Part shown: positions 13,563 through 31,432 of the stretch, one piece after another
How the letters are laid out: each line of letters opens with the position of its first letter
Position numbering within the stretch: the first letter of the stretch is position 1
DNA from: Leptotrichia hongkongensis
Lineage (GTDB): Bacteria; Fusobacteriota; Fusobacteriia; Fusobacteriales; Leptotrichiaceae
Assembly: GCF_007990635.1 (NCBI RefSeq)
Contig: NZ_AP019846.1
Coordinates: 62,001-126,000 of the forward strand
DNA: 64,000 nucleotides
Direction of reading: 5' to 3'
Notes under the pieces: model-generated
Told to the model about the DNA's origin: nothing
What the model saw: the letters and a program-made list of their open reading frames with translations, nothing else
Database searches by the model: none
Translations under genes and position numbers: made by a program

Positions 13563-13839
13563 TATACTAAACCCTGTTTAAATAATGAAATTATTACTAA
13601 CTTTTCTAATAAAGGATGAAAATCTAGTATTTCAAAATAATTAAAATATAATTTTTTTATTTTAATAAACTGATGTAGATGTTAATTGCTAGTATAAATC
13701 TTTACTTCAAGATAAGGATTTATGGTAATGAGCAAACCTACGAGAATAAAAAATAAAAAAATTTGAATGATTATAAATTAGTTATTGAACAATCTTATTA
13801 TAAAAATTAATTTTTATTTTTTAACGGAGAATAGTGTTA
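13563..13839 (-). repeat. MITE-like dispersed repeat, copy D (reverse, core deleted)
   Basis: The reverse complement matches both arms of the copies at 15191, 23736 and 31031. The right arm begins ATACTAAACCCTGTTTAAAT. The left arm includes the block TTTACTTCAAGATAAGG, which occurs (as TTTACTGCAAGATAAGG) only in the 23736 copy. The hairpin core (CTATGGCTAGTCTACGAC to GCTCCGACGG) is missing. The far end is GAGAATAGTGTTA. It has no coding capacity. Confidence 0.75.
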
Positions 13840-14171
13840 ACAAGAAATTATCATGGTTTTTATATTTTCTAGGATTGTCACAATTATATAATCTACGGAA
13901 TAAAAAATTAGTTGATTTTATTTGTGAATTAGTATAAAATACTTGAGAGTATGTTATAAAATTGTTTTAAATTTTTACAAATGTAAGTATAATTTATAGA
14001 TAATTGTAAAAATAATAATATAAAAACTCAATGAATACAAGAATTTCTATGCAAAATATTAAAATTTTACGGTAAAGGTGCTGGAGAAAAATTGTAAAAA
14101 TATTGTAGTTATTAGGGATTTTAAACTTTTATAAATGAAAAAAGATAATTAAAAAAGGAGAAAAAAGAAGA
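13840..14171. other. spacer upstream of GH16 gene
   Basis: AT-rich with no gene. It holds the 18-base repeat shared with 6297-6314 (here 14023-14040) and ends in the GGAG ribosome site of the GH16 gene. Confidence 0.45.
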
Positions 14172-15188
14172 ATGAAAAAAAAGATTTTTTTAAGGGCAGT
14201 TTTGTTTGTACTGGCTGGAAATATGGTATTTGCAGCAGGTGAGAATAAGAAGATAGATACTTCTCAAAAAATCGAGGTTATTGAAAGTGAAGTACAACAA
14301 AAGATTGGAAATATAGAAGGGAAAGCTGAAGTTGAGGTGAAAAGCTCTAGAAGAAGTAAGTTGAACAGATTTATTTCCAAAGTAACAGGAAAAAGCTGGA
14401 AAATGGTTTGGAATGATGAATTTAATGGGAATCAGCTAGATAGTACGAAATGGGCTTATTGGGAAAATGGGAATCCTTGGAATGCGGGGAACTATTTAGA
14501 TGAAAATGGAAATTTGGTCAATCAATATGGATTTGATGCGAAACATTTTTATTTGAGAGATAATGTTAGAGTTGAAAATGGGAATATGATTATAACACTA
14601 AAGAAGGAAACTGATAAAAAAGTTAATATTAATGGTGTAGAAAGACGTATTCTTTATAGTTCAGGTGCGATTCACACAAGAAATCTTTATAATGTGCAGT
14701 ATGGAAAAATTGAAATGAGAGCGGCTATGCCTGAAGGAATTGGGACTTGGCCTGCGTTTTGGATGTGGCCCGCAGGATATTCTCAAGTGGATGGAAATGC
14801 AAATGGTGAAATCGATATAGTGGAAACTTATGGAGATGATATGCGACGTGCGACAGGGACACTTCACGTTCTTAAAAGTGATAATACTTATGAGACATTT
14901 GATGGAGATGATTATAAACTAAGTAAATGGCCTAGGGAAAAATTGACAAACTTTAATACTTATGCCGTGGAATGGGATGATAAAGGAATAAAATGGTTAT
15001 TTAATAATAAAGTATATAAAAAATTCTCTTACAAGGAACTGGAAAAAAGAGGGTTACAAAACCCATTTAACCAACCATATTTCATAATGATAAATGTTGC
15101 TTTGAGCAAGAAAACTGGAGAAGATGGGGATGTCAACTTTCCGACAGAAATGAAAGTTGATTATGTAAGGGTTTATCAGAAAAAATAA
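14172..15188 (+). CDS. secreted glycoside hydrolase family 16 (beta-glucanase type)
   Basis: A 338-residue exported enzyme that should cleave beta-1,3 or mixed beta-glucans. Signal peptide: residues 1-21, ending VFAA. A charged linker (about 25-70) precedes the GH16 domain (about 75-338), with WKMVWNDEFNG at its start. The catalytic motif is EIDIVE (nucleophile E213, D215, acid/base E218), the ExDxxE form with a beta-bulge found in laminarinase-like members. WPAFWMWP and the C-terminal VDYVRVYQ are also typical. There is a strong AAGGAG site. It stands alone; a copy of the MITE-like repeat begins 3 bases after its stop codon. Confidence 0.93.
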   Translation: MKKKIFLRAVLFVLAGNMVFAAGENKKIDTSQKIEVIESEVQQKIGNIEGKAEVEVKSSRRSKLNRFISKVTGKSWKMVWNDEFNGNQLDSTKWAYWENGNPWNAGNYLDENGNLVNQYGFDAKHFYLRDNVRVENGNMIITLKKETDKKVNINGVERRILYSSGAIHTRNLYNVQYGKIEMRAAMPEGIGTWPAFWMWPAGYSQVDGNANGEIDIVETYGDDMRRATGTLHVLKSDNTYETFDGDDYKLSKWPREKLTNFNTYAVEWDDKGIKWLFNNKVYKKFSYKELEKRGLQNPFNQPYFIMINVALSKKTGEDGDVNFPTEMKVDYVRVYQKK

Positions 15189-15190
15189 TT

Positions 15191-15535
15191 TATACCAAAC
15201 CCATTTAAAAATAGGAATAAATTTTTATAATAGGATTGTTTAATAGCTAACTCATAATCATTAAATTAAATCATTTTTTTTATTTTTGTAGGATTGCTCA
15301 TTGCCGCAAATCCTACAACCTATGGCTAGTCTACGACATTTTTCTGCACTGCCAAAAAACTCGCTATGCTCAGACAGTTTTGCCAGCACAGAAAAATGCT
15401 CCGACGGGTTATTTATATTAGAGTCTGATTAAAAAATGAAAATTATATTTTAATTATTTGAAAATATTAGGTTTATATACTTTATTAATTAGAAAAGTTT
15501 GTAATAATTTCGTTATTTAAACGGAGTTTAGTATT
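15191..15535 (+). repeat. MITE-like dispersed repeat, copy A
   Basis: Bounded by ATACCAAACCC-ATTTAAA and TTTAAACGGAGTTTAGTAT, imperfect inverted repeats of each other. The core (15286-15410) holds two hairpins. GTAGGATT pairs with AATCCTAC, and a longer one pairs TTTTTCTGCACTGCCAAAA with TTTTGCCAGCACAGAAAAA around a CTCGCTATGCTC loop. The core is nearly identical in the 31186 copy. It begins right after the GH16 stop. Confidence 0.85.
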
Positions 15536-15564
15536 AATTTGATTAGCGTGAATATAGGTGAATT

Positions 15565-15604
15565 AGACAGGAAGATTTTTGAAAAAAGTTTTTCTGTCTT
15601 TTTT
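15565..15604 (+). terminator. terminator-like hairpin (+)
   Basis: AGACAG(GAA) pairs with (TTT)CTGTCT, followed by TTTTTT. It could end the GH16 transcript beyond the repeat. Confidence 0.6.
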
Positions 15605-15612
15605 GTAAAAGA

Positions 15613-15639
15613 AAAAAGCTATCTCAATAAGAAATAGCT
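15613..15639 (-). terminator. terminator of rmlB-rmlC transcript (-)
   Basis: On the minus strand AGCTATTTC pairs with GAGATAGCT (one mismatch), followed by TTTTTTC. It sits just beyond the rmlC stop. Confidence 0.7.
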
Positions 15640-15656
15640 AATTTTAGATTTTTTTA

Positions 15657-16229
15657 TTATTCAAAATAATTTTTATTTTTATCAAATTTCTGTTGAACTT
15701 TATCCTTTTCAGAAATTGTCAGTTCATCGGGATTTATTCCAAATTCTTCAAATTTCCAGTCGATATTTAAAGTTTTGTCGCTCCATAAAAGTCCGCTGTC
15801 GTATTCTGGAGCATATAAATTTGTACATCTGTAAACAAATTCTGTTTCATCTTCAAGTGTTAGAAATCCATGTGCAAAGCCTTCTGGAACGTAGAACATT
15901 AATTTGTTTTCAGCAGATAATTTTACTGCGTACCATTTTCCAAAAGTTTCGCTTCCTTTTCTTAAATCAACTGCCACATCGTAGACACTTCCTTTTATTA
16001 CTCGTACTAATTTTCCTTGAGTGTGTTTTGTCTGGAAGTGAAGTCCACGTAAAACCCCTTTTTTGGATTTTGAGTGATTGTCTTGGACGAAGTTCATGGT
16101 AAGTCCTAATTCCTCAAAGGATTTTTGGTTGTAAGTTTCCATAAAAAATCCTCTTTCATCTCCAAAAACTTTTGGCTCGATTATTACTAAATCTTTTATT
16201 GGGGTTTCTTTTATTGTAAAATTGTTCAT
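15657..16229 (-). CDS. rfbC: dTDP-4-dehydrorhamnose 3,5-epimerase
   Basis: RmlC epimerises the 4-keto sugar at C3 and C5 on the way to dTDP-L-rhamnose. The 190-residue cupin has GDERGFFMETY near the N-terminus, VQDNHSKSKKGVLRGLHFQ with the catalytic histidine, YDVAVDLRKGSETFG, and VPEGFAHGFLTL. It lies 30 bases downstream of rmlB on the same strand and is clearly co-transcribed. rmlA and rmlD are not in the window. Confidence 0.95.
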   Translation of the reverse strand: MNNFTIKETPIKDLVIIEPKVFGDERGFFMETYNQKSFEELGLTMNFVQDNHSKSKKGVLRGLHFQTKHTQGKLVRVIKGSVYDVAVDLRKGSETFGKWYAVKLSAENKLMFYVPEGFAHGFLTLEDETEFVYRCTNLYAPEYDSGLLWSDKTLNIDWKFEEFGINPDELTISEKDKVQQKFDKNKNYFE

Positions 16230-16259
16230 TAATTTGCTCCTTTTTTTATATAAATTTGA

Positions 16260-17465
16260 TTATTTATTTCCGTACATTTCTTCGTAATATTTTTGATAAT
16301 CTCCTGAGACTACTTCATTTACCCAGTCCTGATGTTCCAAGTACCATTTTACAGTTTTTCTGATACCTGTTTCAAAATCTGTTTCTGGATACCATCCTAA
16401 ATCCCTTGCAATTTTAGAAGGGTCAATAGCATATCTCATATCGTGTCCAAGTCTATCTTGAACATAAGTAATCAAATCATAATTTATATTTTGCAAGTCA
16501 GTTTTTAGAACTTTTTTATATTCGTCATTATTTTCAATTTCTTCTTTTAAAATGTCGATAACCAGTTTTACAATATTAATATTTTGTTCTTCGTTAAAAC
16601 CACCAATATTGTAAATTTCGTAAATATTGGCATTTCTTAAAACTAAGTCGATTCCTTTACAGTGATCTTCTACGTAAAGCCAATCCCTTACATTGTCCCC
16701 TTTTCCGTAAACTGGCAACTTTTTACCTTCCAGTACGTTTTTAATCATAAGTGGGATTAATTTTTCTGGGAAATGGTAAGGTCCGTAGTTGTTTGAACAT
16801 CTTGTAATATTTATTGGCATTTTGTAAGTTTCACCGTAGGCAATTACGATGTGGTCGGCACTCGCTTTGGAAGCTGAATATGGGCTTCTTGGGTCAAGTG
16901 AAGTTTTTTCTGTGAAGAAATTTTTTCCGTAAGTTTTTAAATTCGTTCTATTTTTTACAACTTTTTTCACTTCTTCATCATCAATTACCAAGTCAATCGC
17001 TGTGTCATAATCTTTTGAAAGACTTCCGTAAACTTCGTCTGTGGAAACTTGTAAATATTTTACACCTTCTCTGTAAACTGGATATCCATTTTCATCTTTT
17101 GAAACAGTCCATGCTTTTTTAGCATTTTCCAAAAGATTTTGCGTACCAAGAATGTTTGTTTCTAAAAATATCTGCGGATTTTCAATAGAACGATCAACGT
17201 GTGATTCGGCTGCAAAGTTTACAACAAAGTCAATTTCATTTTCAGAAAAAATTCTCGCAATTTCCTTTTGGTCACGAATATCAACTTTTTCAAATTTTAC
17301 TCTTTCATCTTTAATTTCTTCAGCAATCGTACCTAAATTACCAGCATAAGTTAGCACGTCTACGACAATTACCTTAATTTCATCATTTTTATATTTATTC
17401 AAAATATATTTTAAATAATTGGCACCGATAAAGCCTGCTGCACCTGTCACTAAATATGTTTTCAT
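16260..17465 (-). CDS. rfbB: dTDP-glucose 4,6-dehydratase
   Basis: RmlB converts dTDP-glucose to dTDP-4-keto-6-deoxyglucose using bound NAD. Visible are TGAAGFIG (residues 7-14), the STDEVYG catalytic Thr-Asp-Glu, the SPYSASKASADH Tyr/Lys pair and the NITRCSNNYGPYHFPEKLIP substrate block. At 401 residues it is longer than the usual 340-350. The extra length includes segments around KKAWTVSKDENGYPVY and the region after STDEVYG. AGGAGG precedes the ATG. It pairs with rmlC. Confidence 0.95.
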   Translation of the reverse strand: MKTYLVTGAAGFIGANYLKYILNKYKNDEIKVIVVDVLTYAGNLGTIAEEIKDERVKFEKVDIRDQKEIARIFSENEIDFVVNFAAESHVDRSIENPQIFLETNILGTQNLLENAKKAWTVSKDENGYPVYREGVKYLQVSTDEVYGSLSKDYDTAIDLVIDDEEVKKVVKNRTNLKTYGKNFFTEKTSLDPRSPYSASKASADHIVIAYGETYKMPINITRCSNNYGPYHFPEKLIPLMIKNVLEGKKLPVYGKGDNVRDWLYVEDHCKGIDLVLRNANIYEIYNIGGFNEEQNINIVKLVIDILKEEIENNDEYKKVLKTDLQNINYDLITYVQDRLGHDMRYAIDPSKIARDLGWYPETDFETGIRKTVKWYLEHQDWVNEVVSGDYQKYYEEMYGNK

Positions 17466-17608
17466 ATTTCCTCCTAATTAATTTACTGTAATTTACAGTT
17501 TTTTATTTATCATCACCAATTAAATTATACAATTTTTTTTGATTTTTTCCAAATAAAAATTGTTATAGTAAAGTCATTTTAAAATTATGATAATTTTATA
17601 AAAGTTTA

Positions 17609-18016
17609 TTAATTTTTTTTATTAGTTTTTTTTGGAATATGAATACATTTATTTGTTTTTCTGGGATTGTATATCATAATTCTAGAATAAGATTTTTTTA
17701 TATTTTTTTTGAAGGAAGTCTTTTCTGGGTGAAGTTTTATATATTTTTCAATTAATTTTAAAATTTTGTAAATTTCAATGAATATTGGAAGAAGAACCAT
17801 AATAAAAATTAGCAGGTAAGATTTTGAGAAATATGAAAAAATAATGCTTGTCAGACTGTAACCTTTTTTTGAATTTGTGTCAAAGAACAAATTAAATATT
17901 ATATTTCTCATTAATAGAGTCTGAATTAATGCTATTGGGAACATTATAAGCTTTATTGTTCTTAGGATAGCAAAAACAGATTTTTTTATTGTCTGTATGT
18001 TTTTTTCATCTGACAT
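17609..18016 (-). CDS. hypothetical two-helix membrane protein
   Basis: A 135-residue protein not recognised. It has two probable membrane helices (about residues 20-40 and 65-85) and a basic C-terminal tail (KKSYSRIMIYNPRKTNK). Its ATG overlaps the stop of the upstream gene (TAATG), so the two are translationally coupled and probably one functional unit. The upstream partner is frameshifted, which may silence this gene. Confidence 0.55.
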   Translation of the reverse strand: MSDEKNIQTIKKSVFAILRTIKLIMFPIALIQTLLMRNIIFNLFFDTNSKKGYSLTSIIFSYFSKSYLLIFIMVLLPIFIEIYKILKLIEKYIKLHPEKTSFKKNIKKSYSRIMIYNPRKTNKCIHIPKKTNKKN

Positions 18017-19074
18017 TAGAGAGTTAATAATTTTTCTTTTTCTTCAAATGGAAAATTGTAATACTCATATTCTATTAGAATAAAAATTATTAAAAATACA
18101 AATAAAAATATATTTATTGTCTTTTTTATCTGTAAATTTGTTCCCATTACCCCAAAATCACTGATTTTCTTACTAGTGTCTCTTAATTCAAAATTATTAT
18201 TTAATATTAAAGTTTCACCATTTTCCAGTTTAATTATTTTTCCGTATACTTCTCCTTCAATAGTTTCTTTATTTTTTAGTTTTATTTTTACAATATCCCA
18301 GTTAAAATAAATAATTTTTCCTTTTAACCACATAATTTCATTTTTTTCATTGATAAAAGATAAATTTACCTTGTTGTTATCATCAATCACAGTATCTTTA
18401 ATATTTATAAAGCCCTTTTGAGAATCCTCATAAGTTATAATTTTTAGGTTTTTGTCTATTTTCCACTTTATTTTGCTGTCTTTGTTTATTATTTCGATGG
18501 AACTGTTTTTTAAGTCATCAATGGAATTTATTTCAGCATTTTTTATCAGAATAGATTTTTTATTTAACATTTCCAGCTCATTTTTGTGGGAATTAAGAAA
18601 ATATCCTATTCCAAGAAATATTATTATTGCAGGAAATATTTTTTATATTGAAATTGTAATAATAGGCACTAAAAATTTTCTTTTTTATAATTGTGGTAAT
18701 TAATATTGAAAAAAGTGATAAGATAATGATGATTATGGCAAAAACATAGATAAAATAATTATATCCCTTTAAATTTAACGATATATTTAAAAAAGAAATA
18801 TAAAATAAGGTTATAAACAAAATTCTGATAATATAACTATTTATATTAATAATTGATATTTTTCCACTTTTTGCCTCCTGAATCTTTTCTATTTTTTTAT
18901 TAATTTTATTTTTATTGAATTTTGCTTGCTTCAATTTTTCATTCAGCAGTCTCAATTTTCTATTTAGTTCATTTAACAGTTTTGTATTGTCATTTAATTC
19001 TTTTTTTCGCTTATTTTTATAGTATTTTTTAGAAATTCTATAATTTCTATTTTACTTTTGAACATTTCTTTCAT
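18016..19074 (-). pseudogene. membrane protein gene broken by two homopolymer frameshifts
   Basis: Three frames join into one protein of roughly 350 residues. The true start is ATG 19074 with GGAGGAAAATT ahead, reading MKEMFKSKIEIIEFLK. An A-tract at 19025-19030 then moves the frame to the piece 18593-18955 (coiled, basic, then two membrane helices). A second A-tract at 18639-18644 moves it to the piece 18016-18570, where FPAIIIFLGIGYFLN precedes a beta-rich domain and a last helix. One A more at the first tract and one fewer at the second would restore the whole frame. The family is not recognised. Phase variation, decay or read error are all possible. Confidence 0.6.
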
Positions 19075-19140
19075 AATTTTCCTCCTTTACTGCTAAATTT
19101 CGTTTTGTTATTATAGCATATATTTTATTATTTTTTCCAT

Positions 19141-19168
19141 ATATAAATTATAGAATAGCGAATTGATG
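19141..19168 (+). repeat. 28-bp direct repeat, left of IS
   Basis: Abuts the IS left end and is identical, except for its second base, to 20252-20279. It contains TTATAGAATAGCGAATTGATG. It is read as a target duplication. Confidence 0.8.
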
Positions 19169-20251
19169 TGTATAGATGTCAAACATTTGTTACAAAAATA
19201 TATTAAAAAATATTTCTTTCCTAATGTATCTTTAACCTACTGATTTTCCTTGTACTCTTTTAATACTTCATTTGGACTCTTAAAGCCCAGTACTTTTCTT
19301 GATATGTTGTTGTATCTTGTATTGTATTTCCTTATTGCCCTTAACAGTTCTTCCTTGCTTTTAAATTTCTTGTCTGCATAGTACTTGCTGTCAAGCCTGT
19401 GGCTTCTTTCCACTTTTCCATTCTCCCATGGCGAATATGGACGGGTTGTCACGTACTCTATCCCCTTCTCCTCCAGTTTCAGCTCAAACAGTGTTTTCTT
19501 ATCACTTTCAGAATTTGTGAACTCTTTCCCATTATCTGTCTGAACTTTCTTTATGTCAAATCCCAGCTCCCTTTCCAAGTTCTCTAGAAACTTTGCAGTC
19601 TGATAGGTGCTTTTTTCATCTGCTATCCTTAACACTCTTTTTCTTGTATATTCATCTAATGCTGTTATTTGATAATACTTCTGGTCACGTGTTCCAAACT
19701 GTATGCATTCTTCTGGAACATATTTTATGTCTATCTGCACTCTTTCCCCAGGTACTTCGCCTGTTCAACTTTCTTTTTCTTTTATGCTGCTTTTTAGGCT
19801 TTTCTTTGGCATTGCCCTTCATTTTCCTTATTATCTTGCACATTGAATCGTATGTACGGCTGTAGCCTTCCTTTCTTGCTTTAACATAGACTTCTGCCAG
19901 CCCTTCATAGCCAAATTTCCTGTACTTTTTCATAACCAGCTCTATTTCTTCTTGCGTGTGCTGGTTTGGGTGGCTTTTAGGTCTTCTGCTTTTTGGCAGA
20001 AGAGACTGGACTGTTCCGTCGTATCTGTCTCTCCAACGTTTTATCTGCTGACGTGATGTCTTATACTTCACTGCTGCCTTTGAATTATTATTATGTTTTA
20101 TTGCATACTCAATTGCCCGTTGACGAACACGGTATATTTCTGATATACTACTCATATGAAAGGTTTCTCCTTAATGTGGTTTGGTAGATTTACATTATAT
20201 CAGAAACCTTTCTTTTTTTGTATATTCTTGTCACATATGTATTATCTCACA
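19169..20251 (-). mobile_element. IS element (DDE transposase) with long target duplication
   Basis: About 1083 bp. The ends form imperfect inverted repeats of about 30 bp. The right end, reversed, begins TGTGAGATAATACATATGTG, and the left begins TGTATAGATGTCAAACATTT; the best shared block is GTnACAAnAATATA. The flanking direct repeat is 28 bp. That is too long for IS3 (3-5 bp) or typical IS481, but it fits the long duplications known for the IS1202 group. The element lies about 95 bases upstream of the broken membrane-protein gene. Confidence 0.75.
19237..20155 (-). pseudogene. transposase, frame-disrupted
   Basis: The N-terminal piece (start ATG 20155) has helix-turn-helix repeats (VKYKTSRQQIKRWRDRY) and ends out of frame at 19685. 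The C-terminal piece (to 19237) is the rve catalytic core: first Asp in GERVQIDIKYVP, second in VQTDNGKEF, Glu in SPWENGKVERSH. The frames overlap from about 19765 to 19685. The shift needed is +1 or two successive -1 events. No clear slippery heptamer in the right frame was found, so decay or read error is more likely than programmed frameshifting. Confidence 0.65.
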
Positions 20252-20279
20252 ACATAAATTATAGAATAGCGAATTGATG
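20252..20279 (+). repeat. 28-bp direct repeat, right of IS
   Basis: Second copy of the duplication at 19141-19168, starting exactly at the IS right end; 27 of 28 bases match. Confidence 0.8.
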
Positions 20280-20289
20280 AAATTTGTAT

Positions 20290-20402
20290 TATACTCGAAC
20301 CCATTTAAAATTGAACTGATAGAAATTATATAATTTAGAGTTTGAGTAAAATAGTCATAATTTTTGAGTTCTGTTTTAAACTAGTTTTACTATAGTATTC
20401 TT
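20290..20402. repeat. possible stub of the dispersed repeat
   Basis: Starts TATACTCGAACCCATTTAAA, close to the left terminal repeat, and ends with TTTAAACTAGTTTTACTATAG, close to the right one. There is only about 70 bp of unrelated DNA between. It could be a deletion derivative. Confidence 0.35.
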
Positions 20403-20499
20403 GAAAAAAATTAGATTTATTGTAGAATTTGTGGTATTATAAATAAATAATGGCATTGTAATTAGAAAATAAAATTTTTTAAAAAAAGGAAACTTGTAG

Positions 20500-21393: not shown

Positions 21394-21443
21394 TAATTTA
21401 AAACTAAACAGGATAAACTATAAAAAATGGAGTTGAATAAATT

Positions 21444-21767
21444 ATGGATAAATTAGAAGATTTTTTGAAATATTCTGTGCTATTTTCTTATTATGGCGAA
21501 CTTTTCCCGAAAAAGAAAAGGCAGTATCTGGAACTTTATCTTGAAGAGAACAGTTCCCTTTCAGAAATCGCTGAACAGTATGGAGTAACAAGACAGGCAG
21601 TTTTTGACAATATAAAAAAAGGAGTTCAAAAACTGGATGAATATGAGAGCAAACTTGGAATATTTGAGAAAGAAAAAGAACTGAAGAGAAAATTGGAACA
21701 TTTGAGAAAAAATTTTACTATGAAAAATCTTGAAAAAATAATAGAAGACTTTGATTACACAGAATAA
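21444..21767 (+). CDS. YlxM/UPF0122-family DNA-binding protein
   Basis: A 107-residue protein with a sigma-factor-like helix-turn-helix (SLSEIAEQYGVTRQAVFDNIKKG, residues about 37-58) after YYGELFPKKKRQYLELYLEEN. This is the UPF0122/YlxM signature. In many bacteria the gene sits beside ffh and is linked to the signal recognition particle; here ffh is absent and the neighbour is a TPR gene. The C-terminus is a charged helix. Confidence 0.85.
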   Translation: MDKLEDFLKYSVLFSYYGELFPKKKRQYLELYLEENSSLSEIAEQYGVTRQAVFDNIKKGVQKLDEYESKLGIFEKEKELKRKLEHLRKNFTMKNLEKIIEDFDYTE

Positions 21768-21807
21768 TTTTTCAAATGGAAAAACAAAAATAAAAAATAA
21801 ACTGCTA

Positions 21808-22160: not shown

Positions 22161-23594
<1,434 letters not shown>

Positions 23595-23680
23595 CATTTG
23601 AAATTATTTATTGAAGAAATTAGTAAAAAATAAGAGGATTTTTAAAATAGCGAATCCCCTTTGCTTTTGTATCAAACTTT

Positions 23681-23735
23681 TTAAAATGAAACTGAGAAAC
23701 TTAAATAAAATGCGAATTATAGAAAAAATAAAAAT
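23681..23735 (+). repeat. 55-bp imperfect direct repeat, left of repeat copy B
   Basis: TTAAAATGAAACTGAGAAAC and the following 35 bases recur at 24118-24172 with about seven differences, exactly bracketing copy B. Confidence 0.65.
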
Positions 23736-24117
23736 GTAATAATAAAACCTTCTGAAAATAGGAATAAATTTTTATAATAACTATTTCATAATTATTCAAC
23801 TTTTTTCTTTTTTATTTTCGTAGGATTGCTCATCGCCGCAAAACCTTATCTTGCAGTAAAGGTTTATCCTGATAATCAAAATATTTGGCAAGATTGCTAC
23901 GCAATAACCTATGGCTAGTCTACGACATTTTTCTGCACTGACAAAAAACTCGCTATGCTCAAACAGTTTTGCCAGCACAGAAAAACGCTCCGACAGATTA
24001 GTTTATGATAGATTTTGTTAAAAAAGTAAAAATTATATTTTAATTGTTTAAAAATATTAGGTTTTTATTTTTAAAAAAAAATTTTAATAAATTCGCTATT
24101 TAAACAGGGGTTTAGTA
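23736..24117 (+). repeat. MITE-like dispersed repeat, copy B (longest core)
   Basis: Same arms and core as copies A and C. A 64-base stretch is inserted after GATTGCTCATCGCCGCAAA, including AACCTTATCTTGCAGTAAAG and GATTGCTACGCAATAACC. The rearranged copy at 13563 also has part of this stretch, so it is probably ancestral and was lost from A and C. The right end is GGGGTTTAGTA. Confidence 0.85.
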
Positions 24118-24172
24118 TTAAAATGAAATTGAGAAACTTAAATAATATCAGAATTTTATAAAAAATAAAAAT
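24118..24172 (+). repeat. 55-bp imperfect direct repeat, right of repeat copy B
   Basis: Partner of 23681-23735. It also forms the leader of the TraX-like gene. Confidence 0.65.
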
Positions 24173-24189
24173 ACAAAGGGAGAATTGGT

Positions 24190-24930
24190 ATGAGTATATT
24201 TTATGGAAATAATAGATTTAGCAAGATAAGAGTCTTTTCAGGAGCACAATTAAAATATATCGCTTTTTTATCAATGTTGATTGATCACGTGAATAAGGCT
24301 TTGATGTATCCTTTGCTAACAGAAAATGGATTTTTAAGATATGTGAGCGATGTATTTGATATTTTGGGAAGAGTTGCATTTCCGCTTTTTATGTTTTTTC
24401 TTGTGGAAGGTTTTTTTAAAACAGGAAATAGATTCAAATATCTTTTAAATCTGATTGTTTTTGGAATTATTTCTGAAATTCCATTTGACTTGTTCCAGTC
24501 GGCAGTACTTTTTCAGCCAAATTCAAATAACGTAATGTTTACATTGGCTTTAGCATTAGTTATGATTTGGGTTATTGATGAATTGAAAGTGCCAAAATCA
24601 TATATAATTCCTCCAGTATTATGGTTTCCTGTTTCAATAATAATTGTTATAACAACTTGCCTGTTGTCCATGATTTGGGGATTGGATTATGAATATCACG
24701 GAATTTTGATTGCATATTTTTTCTATATATTTGGTAATAATCCAATATTATCAATTATAGGAGGATATCTTTCGATTGTTAAGACTCCGTGGGCTTTGTT
24801 AGGATTTGGCTTGACACTTGCTTATAATGGGGAGAGAGGAAAACAGAATAAAATTTTGAATTATTTGTTTTATCCTGTACATTTATTAATTTTGGGGTTA
24901 TTGAGGCTGTGTTTTAAAATAGGAATTTAG
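24190..24930 (+). CDS. TraX-family membrane protein
   Basis: A 246-residue integral membrane protein with about seven helices. Family marks are LKYIAFLSMLIDHVNKAL near residue 20, GRVAFPLFMFFLVEGFFKTGN near 75, and the ISEIPFDL and NNVMFTLALAL blocks. TraX of F plasmid acetylates pilin; chromosomal relatives are putative acyltransferases of unknown target. It is followed 20 bases later by a YczE-like gene, likely in one operon. The gene starts directly after the repeat copy and has a weak GGGAG site. Confidence 0.88.
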   Translation: MSIFYGNNRFSKIRVFSGAQLKYIAFLSMLIDHVNKALMYPLLTENGFLRYVSDVFDILGRVAFPLFMFFLVEGFFKTGNRFKYLLNLIVFGIISEIPFDLFQSAVLFQPNSNNVMFTLALALVMIWVIDELKVPKSYIIPPVLWFPVSIIIVITTCLLSMIWGLDYEYHGILIAYFFYIFGNNPILSIIGGYLSIVKTPWALLGFGLTLAYNGERGKQNKILNYLFYPVHLLILGLLRLCFKIGI

Positions 24931-24950
24931 AATGGAGAAATGGAGAGAAA

Positions 24951-25634
24951 ATGAATAGAATGATAAGAGCATATGGATTGCTCATATTACTTACAATATT
25001 AGCGGGGATGGAATTAGCGCTTTTGGTAAAGATGAACGTAGGAGTTGGGCCTTGGGATGCGATGGCACTGTCTTTTTCGTTTTTGACAGGAATAAAAATG
25101 GGAACAGTAGCGATAATATGTAATTATTTATGTGTATTGGGACAACTTATTTTACTAAAAAAGGAATTTAAAAAGATAAATTTTTTACAAATACCTATTT
25201 CTATGTTGCTGGGATATTCAATTAATTTTTTTGTATATGTAGTTTTTAAAAATATGGCATTTAGTAACTATATTTTCAGAATAACAACTAATATTATAGT
25301 ACTTGTATCAGTCGCTTTTACAATGGGAGCAATAGTAGTTTTGGGATTACCAACGTTTGCTTTGGAAGGTTTTTGCAGTGCGATTCATGCAAAAACTGGG
25401 ATTCCTTTTGCAAAATTTAGGCAATGGATAGATTTTTTCTGCGTTGGGCTTGTAGTTATTTTGACACTTGTATTTCCTATAGAATGGAGTCTGCGTGAAG
25501 GAACGATAATTAGCATGATTCTTTTTGGACCTTTACTTGGAATATTTATGCCAAGAATTGAAAAACTCTATGAAAAATGGGATTTAGTTGATGGAAAAAG
25601 TCAAATTGAGAAAGAAATAGAAGGATTGGAATAA
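24951..25634 (+). CDS. YczE/YitT-like membrane protein
   Basis: A 227-residue protein with about six membrane helices. The motif MNVGVGPWDAMALSFS near residue 28 and the later LPTFALEGFCSAIHAKTGIPFAKFRQWIDF are typical of the COG2364 (YczE/YyaS) family, whose biochemical role is unknown. A GGAGAG site lies before the ATG. It is probably co-transcribed with the TraX-like gene. Confidence 0.82.
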   Translation: MNRMIRAYGLLILLTILAGMELALLVKMNVGVGPWDAMALSFSFLTGIKMGTVAIICNYLCVLGQLILLKKEFKKINFLQIPISMLLGYSINFFVYVVFKNMAFSNYIFRITTNIIVLVSVAFTMGAIVVLGLPTFALEGFCSAIHAKTGIPFAKFRQWIDFFCVGLVVILTLVFPIEWSLREGTIISMILFGPLLGIFMPRIEKLYEKWDLVDGKSQIEKEIEGLE

Positions 25635-25672
25635 AAAATAAATTTTATAAAAAATATTGAAGGAGATTAGTT

Positions 25673-26059
25673 ATGAAAATAAATCATGTAGCAATTTATG
25701 TAAAAGATTTGGAAAAAACAAGGGAATTTTATGAGAAATATTTTGAAGCAAAGGCAAATGAGAAATATCATAATAAAAATACTGGATTACAGACTTACTT
25801 CCTAACTTTTCCAGATAGTGAAGCACGGCTTGAAATAATGTCACGTCCTGAACTTTCGGAAAGAAATGATAAAATAATGAATGAAGGCTTTATCCATCTT
25901 GCTTTTAGCGTTGGAAACAAAGAAAATGTCGATAAATTGACACAAAGACTTGTAAATGATGGGTTTAGATGTTTAAGCGGACCTAGGACGACTGGAGATG
26001 GATATTATGAGAGTGTTGTTGAGGATTGTGAAGGAAATTTGATTGAAATAACAGAATAA
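25673..26059 (+). CDS. VOC-family (glyoxalase-fold) protein
   Basis: A 128-residue single vicinal-oxygen-chelate domain. It starts MKINHVAIYVKDLEKTREFYEKYF, the classic first beta-alpha unit with a metal-ligand His. It continues with EARLEIMSRP, FIHLAFSVG and ends ESVVEDCEGNLIEITE, with the last Glu ligand. It resembles lactoylglutathione-lyase-like proteins; the substrate is unknown. There is a good AAGGAG site. Confidence 0.88.
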   Translation: MKINHVAIYVKDLEKTREFYEKYFEAKANEKYHNKNTGLQTYFLTFPDSEARLEIMSRPELSERNDKIMNEGFIHLAFSVGNKENVDKLTQRLVNDGFRCLSGPRTTGDGYYESVVEDCEGNLIEITE

Positions 26060-26152
26060 TAAAATATTTATTTGCAAATTGAGAAAAAAGATTTGAAGAG
26101 TATAATTACTAAAAAGACACATAAAAATTTACAGATAAGAGGAGTGGTAATT

Positions 26153-26746
26153 ATGTTTAAAAAATTAGAGAAAAATGGATTTTATTATGGATTTCCAGTA
26201 TTACTGATGACTACAAAAGATAAAGAAACTGGAAAAAGTAACATAACTCCGTTATCATCTTCATTTGTACTTGGAAAAACAATAGTTGTGGGAATAGGAT
26301 TTGGAAATAAAGGATTTAAGAATATTGAAGCTGGATCGGATGTAACTTTTAATGTTCCAGATGAAAACTTGTACGAAAGTGTGAAAAAGATTGAAAAATT
26401 TACAGGCGATACAGAAATATCAGAAGTAAAGCAGAATCTTGGATATATATACTGTGAAGATAAGTTTAAGATTGCAGGATTTACTGAACTAGCTAGTGAA
26501 ATGGTAAATTCTGTGAGAATAAAGGAGTGTCCAATTCACATAGAGGCAAAAGTTACAGATATTCAGAAAAAAGACTGGTTTGCCATAGTAACCTGTGAAA
26601 TACAGGGGATTTTTGTTGATGAAAAAATAATGAAGGATGATTCTCACATCGATACAAAGAAATGGAAACCATTAATTTATAAATTTAGGGAATATACCTC
26701 AACAGGCGATAGATTGGGATTGAATTTTAATTTTCAGGAAGTTTAA
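26153..26746 (+). CDS. flavin reductase-like FMN-binding protein
   Basis: A split-barrel flavin protein of 198 residues: FPVLLMTTKD, then NITPLSSSFVLGKTIVVGIG, with NVPDENL and a C-terminal REYTSTGDRLGLNF. This is the flavin_reduct family (FMN-dependent NADH reductases and relatives). I start at ATG 26153, which has AGAGGAG upstream; the frame is open back to a TTG at 26072, but that lacks a ribosome site and the extra residues look non-conserved. It follows the VOC gene by about 90 bases. Confidence 0.83.
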   Translation: MFKKLEKNGFYYGFPVLLMTTKDKETGKSNITPLSSSFVLGKTIVVGIGFGNKGFKNIEAGSDVTFNVPDENLYESVKKIEKFTGDTEISEVKQNLGYIYCEDKFKIAGFTELASEMVNSVRIKECPIHIEAKVTDIQKKDWFAIVTCEIQGIFVDEKIMKDDSHIDTKKWKPLIYKFREYTSTGDRLGLNFNFQEV

Positions 26747-26835
26747 GAAGAATTTGGAAGTTATTAAAATCAAAGATTCTGTTGTCTTTCAAGAAAGGTT
26801 ATTTTAAAAAATTGTTTTTTTGATAATTGTTTAAA

Positions 26836-27393
26836 TTAAAAATTTTTAATACCGTTGTAAACAAGACTTTCTATTGTCTCTATAAAATTTTGCAATGGTA
26901 TTTTTTTTCCATCATTTATCCACTGCTTATAACTTCCTAAAATAGATGAAAATACAAATGATAAAATAATATTACGTAGATAGGGCTCTTTTTCTTTAAA
27001 AAATTCTGACTTTTCCCATGTTTTTTTAATAATATTGTTTATCATTTTTTGTAATACATAATCATTTTTTGAATCAATTATTATTTTGTCGTGAGCATTT
27101 CCATAAATTTCTGAAAAATCAATAAAAGTATTAATAATATTTTTTAAATCTTTAGGAAAAGAAAGCAATGAAAATTTTTGTATATATTCGTCAGTAATTT
27201 TGTCTTGTATTTCTAAAAATAAGTTATCAATGGATGAATAATAACGATAGAAAGTTTTTTTGCTAATTTCAGCTTTTTCAATTAATTCTTTTACAGTTAT
27301 TTTTTCATAATCCTTTCCTTTAAAAAGTTCAATAAAGGACTTGTGAATATTCCTTATTGTTTTTTTAATTCTTATATCTTCATAATTAATCAT
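26836..27393 (-). CDS. TetR-family repressor
   Basis: A 185-residue regulator. The N-terminal helix-turn-helix (ITVKELIEKAEISKKTFYRYYSS, residues about 33-55) is typical of the TetR/AcrR family and is followed by an all-helical ligand domain. It is divergent from the old-yellow-enzyme gene across 250 bases, so it probably controls that gene and itself. Confidence 0.9.
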   Translation of the reverse strand: MINYEDIRIKKTIRNIHKSFIELFKGKDYEKITVKELIEKAEISKKTFYRYYSSIDNLFLEIQDKITDEYIQKFSLLSFPKDLKNIINTFIDFSEIYGNAHDKIIIDSKNDYVLQKMINNIIKKTWEKSEFFKEKEPYLRNIILSFVFSSILGSYKQWINDGKKIPLQNFIETIESLVYNGIKNF

Positions 27394-27546
27394 AGTTTTA
27401 CCAGTTTCCTTTCTAAAATAAACTCAAAAATAGTTAAAATTCAAATAATAGAAATTATATAAATTGATAATTTGTAATAGTTTTAAATTTTTTATGCTAT
27501 AAGGAATTTTACAATGAAAAATACTAAAATGCAACTTTTTTGTACC

Positions 27547-27568
27547 AAAAGTGTCAAAAGATACTTTT
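27547..27568. promoter_or_regulatory. candidate TetR operator palindrome
   Basis: AAAAGTGT and ATACTTTT are complementary (one G-T) around CAAAAG, in the divergent TetR/oxidoreductase spacer. Confidence 0.4.
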
Positions 27569-27645
27569 AATAACTAAAAGTTTCTCAAAATAGAAATAAA
27601 TATGTTAAACTTGTATAGTGAAATATAATAAGTGAAAGGATAAAT

Positions 27646-28872
27646 ATGGAAAATCAAATATTATTTACTCCGTTAAAATTAAAAAATGGAGCAGTTATAA
27701 AAAATCGTTTTTTAAAATCTGCAATGAGCGAGGGAATGGCAAATTCTAAAACTAATTCTCCAAATGAGTTGCATGTGAATTTATATAGAAAATGGGCAAA
27801 CGGAGGGACAGGACTTCTGATAACGGGAAATGTTATGATAGATAGACAGGCTTTAGGCGAGCCAGGAAATGTAGTAATAGAAGACGAAAGAGACATGGAA
27901 ATGCTTAAAAAATCGGCAGAAGCAGGGAAAGAAAATAATACACATATATGGATGCAGATAAACCATCCAGGAAAACAGGCTCCTAAAAGTGTAGCAAAAG
28001 AATCTGTTGCACCAAGCGCTATAGAAATTCAAGGAGATTTGAAAAGTGGATTTGTAAAGCCAAGGGAACTTACAAAAGATGAAATAAAAAATTTGATAAA
28101 ACGTTTTGGAAAAGCAGCGGAAATTGCTAAAAAATCAGGTTTTACAGGAGTTCAAATACATGGAGCACACGGATATTTAATAAGCCAGTTTTTATCATCT
28201 GCAGATAATGTGAGAAACGATGAATATGGCGGAAGCATAGAAAATAGAATGAGATTTTTAGTTGATGTATATAATGAAATGAGAGAAAAAGTAGGAAAAG
28301 AATTTCCGATAGGATTAAAAATAAATTCATCAGATTTTAGTAACAATGGATTTACAGAAGAGGAGTCTATTATTGTTATAAAAAAAATGTCCGAAATAGG
28401 AGTAGATCTTATAGAAATATCAGGTGGAAATTATGAAAATTCTAAAATGCTTTCTGAAAGAGGGGATAATGAAAAGGTATTTTTTATAGATTATGCTAAA
28501 AAAGTATTGTCGTTAATAGATACGCCTATCGTAGTTACAGGAGGATTTAAAAAGGTAGAAACTATGCAAAAAGCTATCGAAAAAGAAAAAATATCCATGA
28601 TAGGAATTGCAAGACCCATAGTAATATATCCAAATTTGCCTAATGAAATCAAAGAAGGGCATATATCATCAGTTTCCTTAGAAAGATTAACAACTGGGTT
28701 TAGAGGATTGGATAAAAAATTAGGAGGTCTTATAGGGCTAAGCTATTATGAGCAGCAAATCCGAAGACTTGCAGAGAATAAACCTGTAAAAATTCATAAA
28801 AATGCCTGGAGTCCGCTATTATTTACAATATTGTATCATGGAAAGAATGCGTTAAAACCTAGACGAAGATAG
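27646..28872 (+). CDS. NADH:flavin oxidoreductase (old yellow enzyme family)
   Basis: A 408-residue FMN enzyme with a TIM barrel. Visible are LFTPLKLKNGAVIKNRFLKSAMSE at the N-terminus, GVQIHGAHGYLISQFLS with the substrate-binding His pair, and YGGSIENRMRF. VVTGGF and IGIARP form the phosphate-binding end. There is no C-terminal 4Fe-4S or second flavin domain, so this is a short ene-reductase type. It is divergent from a TetR gene and likely induced by electrophiles. The GAAAGGA site is adequate. Confidence 0.9.
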   Translation: MENQILFTPLKLKNGAVIKNRFLKSAMSEGMANSKTNSPNELHVNLYRKWANGGTGLLITGNVMIDRQALGEPGNVVIEDERDMEMLKKSAEAGKENNTHIWMQINHPGKQAPKSVAKESVAPSAIEIQGDLKSGFVKPRELTKDEIKNLIKRFGKAAEIAKKSGFTGVQIHGAHGYLISQFLSSADNVRNDEYGGSIENRMRFLVDVYNEMREKVGKEFPIGLKINSSDFSNNGFTEEESIIVIKKMSEIGVDLIEISGGNYENSKMLSERGDNEKVFFIDYAKKVLSLIDTPIVVTGGFKKVETMQKAIEKEKISMIGIARPIVIYPNLPNEIKEGHISSVSLERLTTGFRGLDKKLGGLIGLSYYEQQIRRLAENKPVKIHKNAWSPLLFTILYHGKNALKPRRR

Positions 28873-28919
28873 GTTTAGTTAAATTAAATAAAGATTGTTA
28901 AATTTTATCAGAATCTTTA

Positions 28920-28953
28920 ACCTCATAGGTAAATATATCTATGGGGGTTTTTA
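28920..28953 (+). terminator. terminator after oxidoreductase gene
   Basis: CCTCATAG pairs with CTATGGGG, followed by TTTTT. Confidence 0.7.
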
Positions 28954-29045
28954 TATTAAAGTAAAAAAGAATTTGGGAAATAAAAGAGAAGTGTGTTAAA
29001 ATGAGAATAGAAAGATATATGGCTAGTAAAGGAGAGTTTACAGAA

Positions 29046-30749
29046 ATGAAAAATTATAAAGAATTAGAAAAAATATTATTTTCAATGGATGGAAAAAGTT
29101 ATTCGCTGTATAAGTCGCTTAAAGGGGAATATAGGTTTGAAAAATATATTCTTGCGATTGATCATGTGCAGTCGGATCCTTATGCTCCGCCTTCAAAAAT
29201 GAGAGTTGTAATGGATAGGAAAATTTGCGGGATTCCTTGTCAGCTGACAGATACGAAGGATAAGAATATTGCAGTTTCGGATTTTCTTACGAGAAATTTT
29301 TACAGGGAAATTCAGAAAAGTGGGAATGACAGTACAGGAACTGGGGGAAGTGGAAGAATTTTTATTGACAGGTGTGGACAGGAAATCTTGGAAAGAACTT
29401 CGGTTATGATAAAGGGAGATAAAGTTGAAGTGAGGTTTGAAATGGGGATGCCTGCGAGAGGCAGACAGATAATGGGAAAAGCCGCACAGAAAATTATTTT
29501 TGAACAGTTGCCTGAAATTGTCGAAAAATCCATTATTTATGATAATTTGAATAAAAAAGCGTTAAATGAGCAGGTAATTCTAGTGCTGGATCAGGAATAT
29601 GCGAGAAAAATGTTGAAGGAAAAAGGGCTTGTTGCATTTGTGGCTAATGATTCTGTGCTTCCACGTGAAAGTGGAGTTTCGGATAGACCTATGAAAAATG
29701 CAGTTAAGTTTAAAAGTCCAGAAAAATTTGAGATTACATTAAAGCTTCCAAGTGGGAAAGAAATAAGCGGAATGGGGATTCCAAAAGGAATTACGCTAAT
29801 TGTGGGTGGAGGTTATCACGGTAAATCCACGTTGCTTGCGGCACTTGAAAGAGGAGTTTACAACCATATTGCTCAAGATGGGCGTGAATTTATAATTTCT
29901 GAATCGGATGCGGTAAAAATATGTGCGGAAGATGGAAGAAATGTGGAAAAGGTGAATATAAGCGGATTTATCAATAACTTGCCACAAAATAAGGATACAA
30001 GGGCTTTTTCAACTGAAAATGCGAGCGGAAGCACGTCGCAGGCGGCAAATGTGGCTGAAGCACTGGAATATGGGACTTCTTTGCTTCTAATAGATGAGGA
30101 CACTTCGGCTACAAATTTTATGATTCGTGACGGAAGAATGCAAAAACTTGTGGCAAAGGAAAAAGAGCCGATAACACCGTTTATTGACAGGGTAAAGGAA
30201 CTTTATGACAATTTTGGAGTTTCTACGATATTGATTGTCGGCGGCTCTGGAGATTATTTTGATGTGGCAAATCACGTTATAATGATGGATGAATATGTGC
30301 TAAAAGATGTAACAGAAAAAGCAAAAGAGATTGCAAATTTGGATGAAAACAAGCGAGAATTTTCTTCAAATGATAAATTTCAAGGAATTACACAGCGAAT
30401 TCCACTCAAAAAAAGTTTTTCACAATCTGGAAAACTCGATAAAACAAAAGCCAAAGGGAAATGCAGCATTCTGTATGGAAAGGAATTAATCGACATTTCA
30501 GGGCTGGAGCAGCTTGTGGATGACAGCCAGACAAACTGCATTGCTGTAATGATTGACTATTTTAAAAATAAAGTGCTGGATGAAAAACTGACACTTTCGC
30601 AAACGGCTGACAGGATTTATGAAAAGATTGAAAAGGACGGGCTTGATTCAATTTCTTCGTACACAGGGCATCCAGGAAATTTGGCATTGCCTAGAAAACA
30701 GGAATTTTGTGGGGCGGTGAATAGGTATAGGAAGTTGAAAATAAAATAA
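29046..30749 (+). CDS. predicted ABC-class ATPase (PF09818-like)
   Basis: A soluble P-loop protein of about 567 residues belonging to the ABC_ATPase family of unknown function. Family marks are the N-terminal YILAIDHVQSDPYAPPSKMR, GSGRIFIDRCGQEIL, the P-loop GGGYHGKSTLL, a Walker B-like LLIDEDTSATNFMIRD, and VGGSGDYFDVANHVIMMD. I prefer ATG 29046 because the family normally begins just before the KELEKIL-type helix and GGAG lies 11 bases upstream. The frame also has an ATG at 29001 with a weak AGAGAAG site. It has no membrane partner. Confidence 0.85.
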   Translation: MKNYKELEKILFSMDGKSYSLYKSLKGEYRFEKYILAIDHVQSDPYAPPSKMRVVMDRKICGIPCQLTDTKDKNIAVSDFLTRNFYREIQKSGNDSTGTGGSGRIFIDRCGQEILERTSVMIKGDKVEVRFEMGMPARGRQIMGKAAQKIIFEQLPEIVEKSIIYDNLNKKALNEQVILVLDQEYARKMLKEKGLVAFVANDSVLPRESGVSDRPMKNAVKFKSPEKFEITLKLPSGKEISGMGIPKGITLIVGGGYHGKSTLLAALERGVYNHIAQDGREFIISESDAVKICAEDGRNVEKVNISGFINNLPQNKDTRAFSTENASGSTSQAANVAEALEYGTSLLLIDEDTSATNFMIRDGRMQKLVAKEKEPITPFIDRVKELYDNFGVSTILIVGGSGDYFDVANHVIMMDEYVLKDVTEKAKEIANLDENKREFSSNDKFQGITQRIPLKKSFSQSGKLDKTKAKGKCSILYGKELIDISGLEQLVDDSQTNCIAVMIDYFKNKVLDEKLTLSQTADRIYEKIEKDGLDSISSYTGHPGNLALPRKQEFCGAVNRYRKLKIK

Positions 30750-30840
30750 TCTTTTTATAAATGATAAAGGGAAGAATTTATTTGAGTAAACAGTAAAATA
30801 GAATTTGAAAATTAGATACTATTAGTTTAAAATGAAATAG

Positions 30841-30886
30841 AAAAAAGACTTGCTTGGAATAGTAAATTCTGAGTCTAGTCTTTTTT
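30841..30886 (+). terminator. terminator after ABC-class ATPase gene
   Basis: AAAAAAGACT pairs perfectly with AGTCTTTTTT. Confidence 0.8.
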
Positions 30887-30904
30887 GTTTATAACTTTAT
30901 TTTT

Positions 30905-30924
30905 ATACTATTTTCCGTTTAAAT
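30905..30924. repeat. isolated terminal repeat of the dispersed element
   Basis: ATACTATTTTCCGTTTAAAT resembles the reversed right end of copy C; no body follows. Confidence 0.4.
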
Positions 30925-31030
30925 AGTAGAAATCAAAAAATTTATGAGATTAAAGTCATTTTTTTATAGGGCTATGCTATTGTATAATCTATGTAGCTAT
31001 TAAAATATCCTTTAATTAAATTTAATTATT

Positions 31031-31432
31031 AATACTAAATCCCTTTTGAAAATAAGAATAAATTTTTATAATAGAATTGTTTAATAATTAATTCGTAATC
31101 ATTCAACTAAATTATTTTTTATTATTTTTTGGACATTTTATTAATAAATATTTTTTCATATTACTATGTTTTTTCTTTTTTATTTTCGTAGGATTGCTCA
31201 TTGCTGCAAATCCTACAACCTATGGCTAGTCTACGACATTTTTCTGCACTGACAAAAAACTCGCTATGCTCAGACAGTTTTGCCAGCACAGAAAAATGCT
31301 CCGACGGATTAGTTTACACTAAGTTCTATTTAAAAAATGAAAATCATATCTTAAATTACTTGAAAATATTAGGTTTATATCCTTTATTGAAAAAGTTTGT
31401 AATAAATTCGTTATTTAAATAGGAAATAGTAT
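31031..31432 (+). repeat. MITE-like dispersed repeat, copy C
   Basis: Begins ATACTAAATCCCTTTTGAAA and ends TTTAAATAGGAAATAGTAT. The core 31186-31310 differs from copy A by only a few bases. An extra AT-rich stretch (about 31110-31170) lies before the core. A 73-codon frame inside it is not considered a gene. Confidence 0.85.

What the first reader, a model, noticed from the sequence alone, without database searches (positions are those of the whole stretch)
13563..31432. Dispersed MITE-like repeat family with terminal inverted repeats and a conserved hairpin core
Copies at 15191-15535, 23736-24117 and 31031-31432, and a reversed, core-deleted one at 13563-13839. All share ends of the form ATACTAAACCC-TTTAAATA and no gene. 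Where present, the core is much better conserved than the AT-rich arms, which suggests recent spread or selection on RNA/DNA structure. The size (280-400 bp), ends and lack of ORF fit a miniature element mobilised by a transposase elsewhere. I know of no named family matching it.
Basis: partly seen in the sequence, partly recalled or inferred. Interest (0 to 1): 0.75.

Follow-up and report, generated by a model that had tools for sequence, protein, structure and literature searches.

The report
Mobile DNA repeat with swappable hairpins
Leptotrichia genomes carry dozens of short gene-free DNA elements that have jumped around the chromosome, and many of them carry a folded, unusually well conserved hairpin cassette whose job is unknown.

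Summary
The four window copies belong to a family found at 65 places in this genome (a lower bound). The core is found in 12 of 13 genomes of the genus (own included) and in 0 of 20 others of the family. At three insertion sites a relative has uninterrupted sequence; they show a 3-bp TTA/TAA target duplication and ends TACTAAACCCC(R)TTTAAA. Flanking triplets agree in 44 of 62 elements (27 expected). The ancestral unit looks like a coreless MITE of about 118 bp, also present in the one genome without the core. The core is a separable two-hairpin cassette: two stem versions related by paired changes, and short and long forms that differ between orthologs at 5 of 9 sites; 9 of 44 cores have no recognisable end. 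It diverges about half as fast as the arms between orthologs and 0.3 times as fast between paralogs, so it looks constrained and partly homogenised. The ends have decayed, so recent spread is not the reason. No autonomous partner was found; an IS5/PIF-Harbinger-like transposase is inferred only from the target triplet. The cassette's function is unknown; structured RNA is the most novel open reading.

The parts
13565..13836 (-). MITE copy, reversed, large hairpin lost; flanked by TTA (13562-13564 and 13837-13839)
   Evidence: uninterrupted homologous sequence in G012 (overlapping loci L146/L153, 77% over 173 bp) and less cleanly in G001 (L144); orthology not tested
15193..15533 (+). MITE copy with short type-1 core; flanked by TTA (15190-15192 and 15534-15536)
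23740..24117 (+). MITE copy with long type-1 core and degenerate left end (TAATAAAACC)
   Evidence: site uninterrupted in G003 and G001, shared insertion in G002, element in opposite orientation in G004
31033..31431 (+). MITE copy with short type-1 core; flanks TAA (31030-31032) and TGA (31432-31434), not equal
15288..15407 (-). core cassette, short form; this strand folds best
23820..23996 (-). core cassette, long form
31188..31307 (-). core cassette, short form
13670..13741 (+). remnant of the core (small hairpin and part of the long-form insert); inner limit approximate
   Evidence: genome place 75741
23681..23735 (+). left copy of the 55-bp direct repeat around the 23740 element
   Evidence: D11
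24118..24172 (+). right copy of the 55-bp direct repeat
   Evidence: D11; same arrangement in G002

Best explanation
This is a genus-specific family of non-autonomous DNA transposons (MITEs). The mobile unit begins and ends with TACTAAACCCC(R)TTTAAA, inserts at TTA/TAA and duplicates those 3 bp (shown). A small coreless form of about 118 bp is probably the ancestor; in most of the genomes examined a larger form arose by taking up a two-hairpin cassette between a left arm and a right arm homologous to the small MITE (inferred from distribution and similarity). A transposase acting in trans moved the copies. Its identity is not known; from the 3-bp TWA target I think an IS5/ISL2-type (PIF/Harbinger-like) enzyme, now lost or undetected, most likely (inferred). 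The cassette is kept in shape after insertion: arms and ends drift while the stems keep pairing, and copies exchange the cassette by recombination between elements, which explains the short/long differences at fixed sites (shown as a pattern; the mechanism is inferred). What the cassette does is not shown. I think most likely that it acts as a transcribed RNA fold that makes insertions tolerable downstream of genes.
For: Sites uninterrupted in relatives, with 3-bp duplication: TraX-like gene locus, empty in G003 and G001, filled in G004; window 13565 copy; genome place 1369282 against G001. Flank triplets equal in 44 of 62 elements with TNA on both sides, 27.2 expected, 0 of 50,000 shuffles as high; elements under 300 bp 20 of 23 (first, less strict test: 39 of 63, p 0.0024). 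Core model R1 hits 12 of 13 genus genomes, 0 of 20 other family genomes and 1 of the other 65, marginal at E 5.6e-4. The genome without a core match (G009) has end pairs spanning 98 and 118 bp. Structure: 98.5% of cells pair, 14 pairs with changes on both sides, 140 such cells against 44.8 in shuffles, slid controls 37-49% paired. Divergence, one pair per site at 9 sites: core 2.6%, arms 5.3%, ratio 0.49 (bootstrap 0.30-0.83); paralogs 4.4% against 16.0% in G000 and 3.8% against 12.0% in G001. Short and long forms differ at 5 of the 9 sites. 0 of 44 typed cores inside ORFs; 1 of 44 between divergent genes, against 6 of 40 gaps in the window.
Against: No transposase with these ends was found: PF01609, PF13359 and PF01797 have no match in this genome, and the IS5-type copies of relatives have other ends. 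Only 6 of 13 genomes were searched for end pairs, with 150 of about 8,000 candidates scored per genome, and of 187 matches in G001 and G002 only 150 were listed and paired. 18 of 62 elements have unequal triplets. Most double changes separate two cassette types and may be few events; the number of further pair types, 33, is not above shuffles (356 of 500 reach it), and 8 of 500 shuffles reach the 14 double-changed pairs. At two orthologous sites the core differs more than the arms: 169/175 against 225/225 and 115/120 against 226/229. In 9 type-2 elements of other genomes the large hairpin (92.5%) is hardly better conserved than the arms (91%). There is no common strand preference towards neighbouring genes, which speaks against a strand-specific role for neighbours.
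Confidence: 0.8

Rival explanations
1. The core is an independent, structured non-coding RNA or single-stranded-DNA hairpin element that spreads or is maintained on its own; the MITE arms are passengers or later neighbours.
For: 9 of 44 typed cores lack both recognisable ends and 22 lack one (a score cut-off that also misses the left end of the 15.2-kb window copy); MITEs exist without cores; a third sequence family in the same genomes has the same plan, long stem, AGACnAGCC linker, short GC-rich hairpin, A-rich tail, without these ends by eye.
Against: 13 of 44 have both ends; in elements with both ends the right arm is 103-107 bp in 25 of 30 type-1 copies, though the left arm varies from 60 to 183; loss of ends by decay explains the naked cores equally well; no empty site of a naked core was seen in the part's output that was shown.
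Confidence: 0.25
2. REP-like elements moved by a RAYT or IS200-type tyrosine transposase: the small hairpin begins with GTAG.
For: GTAG at the base of the small hairpin on the window strand; REP super-families are tagged GTAG or CGTC (PMC3733652, abstract and passages).
Against: In REPs the tag is unpaired (same abstract); here it is paired and varies to GCAG or ACAG, mostly together with its partner. No Y1_Tnp match in this genome. The core was found near 1 of the 30 Y1 loci fetched, of 40 matches listed. A 3-bp duplication was found, which IS200-type transposition does not make (recalled).
Confidence: 0.05
3. Ordinary host element: a regulatory or terminator structure amplified by duplication, not by transposition.
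For: Intergenic position, few in divergent gaps.
Against: Uninterrupted sites with target duplication; no terminator-like site in the one copy scanned; no common strand preference.
Confidence: 0.03
4. The core is conserved only because copies are homogenised by gene conversion, with no selection on its structure.
For: Short/long differences at 5 of 9 orthologous sites; two sites where the core differs more than the arms; paralog core divergence lower than the ortholog ratio predicts.
Against: The core is also slower than the arms between orthologs; two cassette types keep pairing through changes on both sides.
Confidence: 0.2

Closest known systems
BOX elements of Streptococcus pneumoniae
   Same: Interspersed, modular (end modules with an optional inner module), folded as RNA, with terminal inverted repeats and target duplication (PMC3049150, passages seen).
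   Different: BOX varies by tandem copies of boxB; here the inner cassette has two alternative stems and a short and a long form. An IS partner (ISSpn2) has been proposed for BOX (same passages); none was found here. Sequences were not compared.
Correia/NEMIS elements and RUP
   Same: Small non-coding repeats with terminal inverted repeats, counted among bacterial MITEs; RUP ends resemble those of IS630-Spn1 (PMC3733652 and PMC3049150, passages seen).
   Different: They use a TA target (recalled); here the target is TTA/TAA.
Tourist-like MITEs of PIF/Harbinger transposons and bacterial IS5 family
   Same: 3-bp target duplication; canonical Harbinger makes 3-bp duplications and is placed with the IS5 family (PMC12730594, passages seen).
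   Different: The TWA preference of Tourist elements is recalled. No IS5-family transposase with these ends was found.
GTAG/CGTC-tagged REP sequences
   Same: Extragenic hairpins with GTAG at one end.
   Different: The REP tag is unpaired (PMC3733652, abstract), here it is part of the stem; no RAYT association; longer; often inside a MITE.

Membership tests
MITE (non-autonomous DNA transposon) | terminal inverted repeats | tested here: met
   left and right ends share TACTAAACCCCRTTTAAA
MITE (non-autonomous DNA transposon) | target site duplication of fixed length | tested here: met
   3 bp TTA/TAA:
MITE (non-autonomous DNA transposon) | no coding capacity | tested here: met
   no ORF of 90 aa or more within the window copies
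MITE (non-autonomous DNA transposon) | autonomous relative with the same ends | tested here: inconclusive
   None in 6 of 13 genomes, with limited candidates scored; three transposase families checked
IS5/PIF-Harbinger-type MITE | 3-bp TNA target duplication | tested here: met
IS5/PIF-Harbinger-type MITE | ends shared with an IS5-family element of the host or its relatives | tested here: not met
   IS5-type elements of relatives whose ends were read have GACCTGTTCGATAAC or GGGCGTGTCTGAAAA; this genome has no PF01609 or PF13359 match
REP / RAYT system | linked REP-associated tyrosine transposase | tested here: not met
REP / RAYT system | unpaired GTAG or CGTC tag beside the hairpin | tested here: not met
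   The GTAG is paired in the small hairpin
Known RNA family (Rfam 15) | match above gathering score | tested here: not met
   None over the repeat in the window; relaxed searches gave only matches below gathering score
BOX-like modular repeat | optional inner module between constant end modules | tested here: met
   Works like it: coreless, short-core and long-core forms. Membership by sequence was not tested

The most novel reading that the evidence does not exclude
The core is a member of an undescribed structured RNA class in Leptotrichia. Its plan is a closed GUC/GAC base, a long stem, an AGCC-containing linker, a short GC-rich hairpin and an A-rich tail. It occurs in at least three sequence families, two of which ride in MITEs, and it is preserved and exchanged as a cassette because its transcript does something for the element or the host.
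Probability: 0.25. Interest if true: 0.7.

Novelty: new variant of a known kind. Interest (0 to 1): 0.45.

Why it matters
A MITE without function is expected to decay as a whole. Here a structured cassette stays largely intact, keeps its base pairs while its letters change, and differs in form at fixed chromosomal sites while the ends decay. That offers a direct test of whether a parasitic repeat has been given, or has kept, a function. It also describes a repeat family that could mislead assembly and typing of oral Leptotrichia.

Tried and rejected
Autonomous IS: 30 PF01609 loci, 30 Y1_Tnp loci and 14 further PF13359 loci were scanned for the ends and the first two sets for the core; no transposase element carried these ends. 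Long end pairs: in G012 the 1,509-bp pair is a TnpB-type element inserted in a small MITE, and in G006 the 1,036-bp pair spans a host gene. The 2,527-bp pair in G002 spans two genes that look metabolic, and other pairs of 640-2,700 bp in held loci hold no ORF that looks like a transposase, except the G001 locus L144, where an IS5-type element with other ends lies between two MITE copies (ORFs judged by eye). Presence of the type-1 core on phages and plasmids: no match; of a 20-base core pattern in viral contigs: none. Rfam at relaxed threshold: matches below gathering score only (third hairpin family). Strand-specific regulation: no common bias; type 1 leans one way (16 against 7 with both neighbours co-oriented) and type 2 the other (4 against 9). 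Promoter in the left arm (TTTAAA-16-TATAAT at 15204-15231): found, but 2 sites in the region against 2.7 expected.

Papers: 'Leptotrichia' with 'miniature inverted-repeat' gave one paper, a review; 'Leptotrichia, repetitive, intergenic, hairpin' gave four, none on this by title; two broader searches listed 12 of 101 and 12 of 31 papers, none on this by title. Only listings were seen for these. Of PMC3733652 I saw the outline with abstract, and passages; of PMC3049150 and PMC12730594 passages.

Errors and droppings: one search assumed reversed loci and was replaced. labels L237 as short form because an anchor matched early; searches show it is long. In one search site F gave no result because its core anchor is mutated; its counts are. 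first skipped element ends abutting a core (not counted), then cut 112 rows to 73 by removing repeats of the same or orthologous place; 11 of the 73 lack TNA on at least one side. The context count leaves out 8 untyped cores; of these one lies inside an ORF of the simple caller and one between divergent genes. The output was cut. That loci L110-L125 are genome G004 is inferred from one matching contig and position (L118).

Full report
The observation. The end motif alone would not stand out in such AT-rich DNA, but the copies align over their whole length. The reversed copy at 13.5 kb still holds part of the core. No reading frame of 90 aa or more lies inside them.

How common it is. Searches of the window's own genome listed 64, 52 and 66 matches for a whole copy, the core and the reversed copy, each with only 40 candidates scored. 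I merged these by hand into 65 places, with 52 core starts: 26 type 1, 18 type 2, 8 remnants or undefined. With the core as a DNA query, 12 of 13 genomes of the genus match, own included. With a covariance model, 13 of 98 genomes of the phylum match: the same 12, and one marginal hit (E 5.6e-4) elsewhere in the order; 0 of 20 other genomes of the family. The only named records from a pattern scan of public genomes are 16 stretches of Leptotrichia sp. oral taxon 879 F0557; records near the window's genome may be left out there.

It moved. Beside a TraX-like gene, genomes G003 and G001 have an uninterrupted sequence. G004 has an element there between two copies of TTA, where the empty site has one; G000 and G002 carry an element at the same place. 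The 13.5-kb window copy sits at a TTA that is uninterrupted in homologous sequence of G012 (77% over 173 bp, overlapping loci L146 and L153; orthology not tested) and less cleanly of G001. A copy at genome place 1369282 sits at a TAA that is uninterrupted in G001. Over 73 elements from the held loci, 62 have TNA on both sides and in 44 the two triplets agree (27.2 expected; none of 50,000 shuffles as high); for elements under 300 bp it is 20 of 23. The next three letters outward agree in only 3 of 73. An earlier, less strict version gave 39 of 63 (p 0.0024). So the target is TTA or TAA and is duplicated. The 31-kb window copy has unequal triplets (TAA, TGA).

Anatomy. The ends share about 18 bp, TACTAAACCCC(R)TTTAAA, followed by less alike arms. 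Spans between paired ends in six genomes fall mostly into classes of 93-127, 147-235 and 326-496 bp. The smallest class is common in G012 and G006 and occurs in G009, which has no core match; the 13 short elements of G005, G006, G009 and G012 that I printed have no core. By eye their sequence is homologous to the right arm of the large elements. I infer that the large element arose by capture of the core.

The core. On the window's minus strand it folds into a long hairpin closed by GUC/GAC, a linker CTAGCCATAGG and a short hairpin. Alignment of 38 short cores gives 38 pairs, 98.5% of cells paired, 14 pairs with changes on both sides, and slid controls at 37-49%. Against shuffled partners, cells paired, cells with double changes and the covariation score were never reached (0 of 500), the 14 pairs were reached in 8 of 500, and the number of further pair types was not exceptional (356 of 500). 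Twelve of the 38 sequences belong to the second cassette type, so most double changes could reflect few events; pair 99-125 of the small hairpin also varies within type 2. G-U pairs on the minus strand, and a lower folding energy of typed consensus sequences there (-47.9 against -31.3 and -47.7 against -34.7 for the two types), point to that strand. The long form holds an extra insert of about 57 bp. The core has no Rfam match above threshold (relaxed), the type-1 core has no match on phages or plasmids, and a 20-base core pattern has none in viral contigs.

Constraint and exchange. Between 8 type-1 copies of this genome the core is 94-97% identical, the arms 87% and the ends 79-84%; for 9 type-2 elements of other genomes the contrast is weak, with the large hairpin at 92.5% and the arms at 91%. 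With one pair per orthologous site at nine sites, the core differs by 2.6% and the arms by 5.3%, ratio 0.49 with bootstrap 0.30-0.83. Between type-1 paralogs the figures are 4.4% and 16.0% in G000 (23 elements) and 3.8% and 12.0% in G001 (11 elements). So the core is slower in both comparisons, and paralogous cores are closer than the ortholog ratio predicts, which suggests homogenisation as well. Short and long forms differ at 5 of these 9 sites; four were aligned and show a clean insert. Two sites go the other way, with cores differing more than arms. Five of 18 orthologous core pairs, at three sites, lie in opposite orientation, with right arms only 76-84% alike, as between paralogs, and one search shows one more such site: independent insertion or replacement, not simple inversion.

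Context. None of 44 typed cores lies inside an ORF of the simple caller and 1 of 44 lies between divergent genes (window background 6 of 40 gaps); among the 8 untyped cores one lies in an ORF and one between divergent genes. There is no common strand preference: 20 against 16 with both neighbours co-oriented, type 1 leaning one way (16 to 7) and type 2 the other (4 to 9). Of the 44, 13 have both recognisable ends, 22 one and 9 none. The cut-off there misses some real ends, for instance the left end of the 15.2-kb window copy, and about 6% of random 260-bp windows reach it.

The missing partner. IS5-type (PF01609, PF13359) and IS200-type (PF01797) transposases have no match in this genome. In relatives the IS5-type elements whose ends were read have other ends, and the core lies near only 1 of 30 IS200-type loci. 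End pairs 0.6-3 kb apart turned out to span host genes, neighbouring MITEs, a TnpB-type element inserted in a MITE, or an IS5-type element with other ends. Seven of 13 genomes were not searched for end pairs, candidates were capped, and other transposase families were not searched; the partner may exist.

Interpretation. A MITE family is as good as shown. An IS5/PIF-Harbinger-like enzyme is inferred only from the 3-bp TWA target. The core is best read as a captured cassette that is under structural constraint and exchanged among copies. Whether it works as RNA, and for whom, is open. A third hairpin family in the same genomes with the same plan but other sequence makes an RNA class worth testing; I have not shown that it is homologous.

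Noticed in passing
window 20290-20394: A second MITE-like family of about 105 bp (TATACTCGAACCCATTTAAAATT ... AACTAGTTTTACTATA), also seen nested in or beside several copies of the first family, for example at genome places 354367 and 2172092.
   Followed up: partly
window 19163-20279: A transposase-like gene split into two frames (ORFs 19237-19740 and 19685-20155, minus strand), flanked by a direct repeat ATAAATTATAGAATAGCGAATTGATG; by eye IS481-like, not searched against families.
   Followed up: no
window 23681-23735 and 24118-24172: A 55-bp direct repeat (89%) around the 23740 element, shared with G002; best read as recombination between two insertions about 50 bp apart.
   Followed up: partly
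L069:1200-1370 (minus); also L010, L014, L026, L129, L219: A third hairpin family with the same plan as the core (long stem, AGACnAGCC linker, GC-rich hairpin, A-rich tail) without the MITE ends by eye; a TATAAT lies just upstream in some copies.
   Followed up: partly
L262:1509-3017: A TnpB-type element inserted into a small coreless MITE in G012.
   Followed up: yes
L144:1050-2530: A MITE with its flank occurs twice, on both sides of an IS5-type element in G001.
   Followed up: no
window 19021-19163 and 32769-32911: A 143-nt direct repeat (79%) outside the family studied.
   Followed up: no
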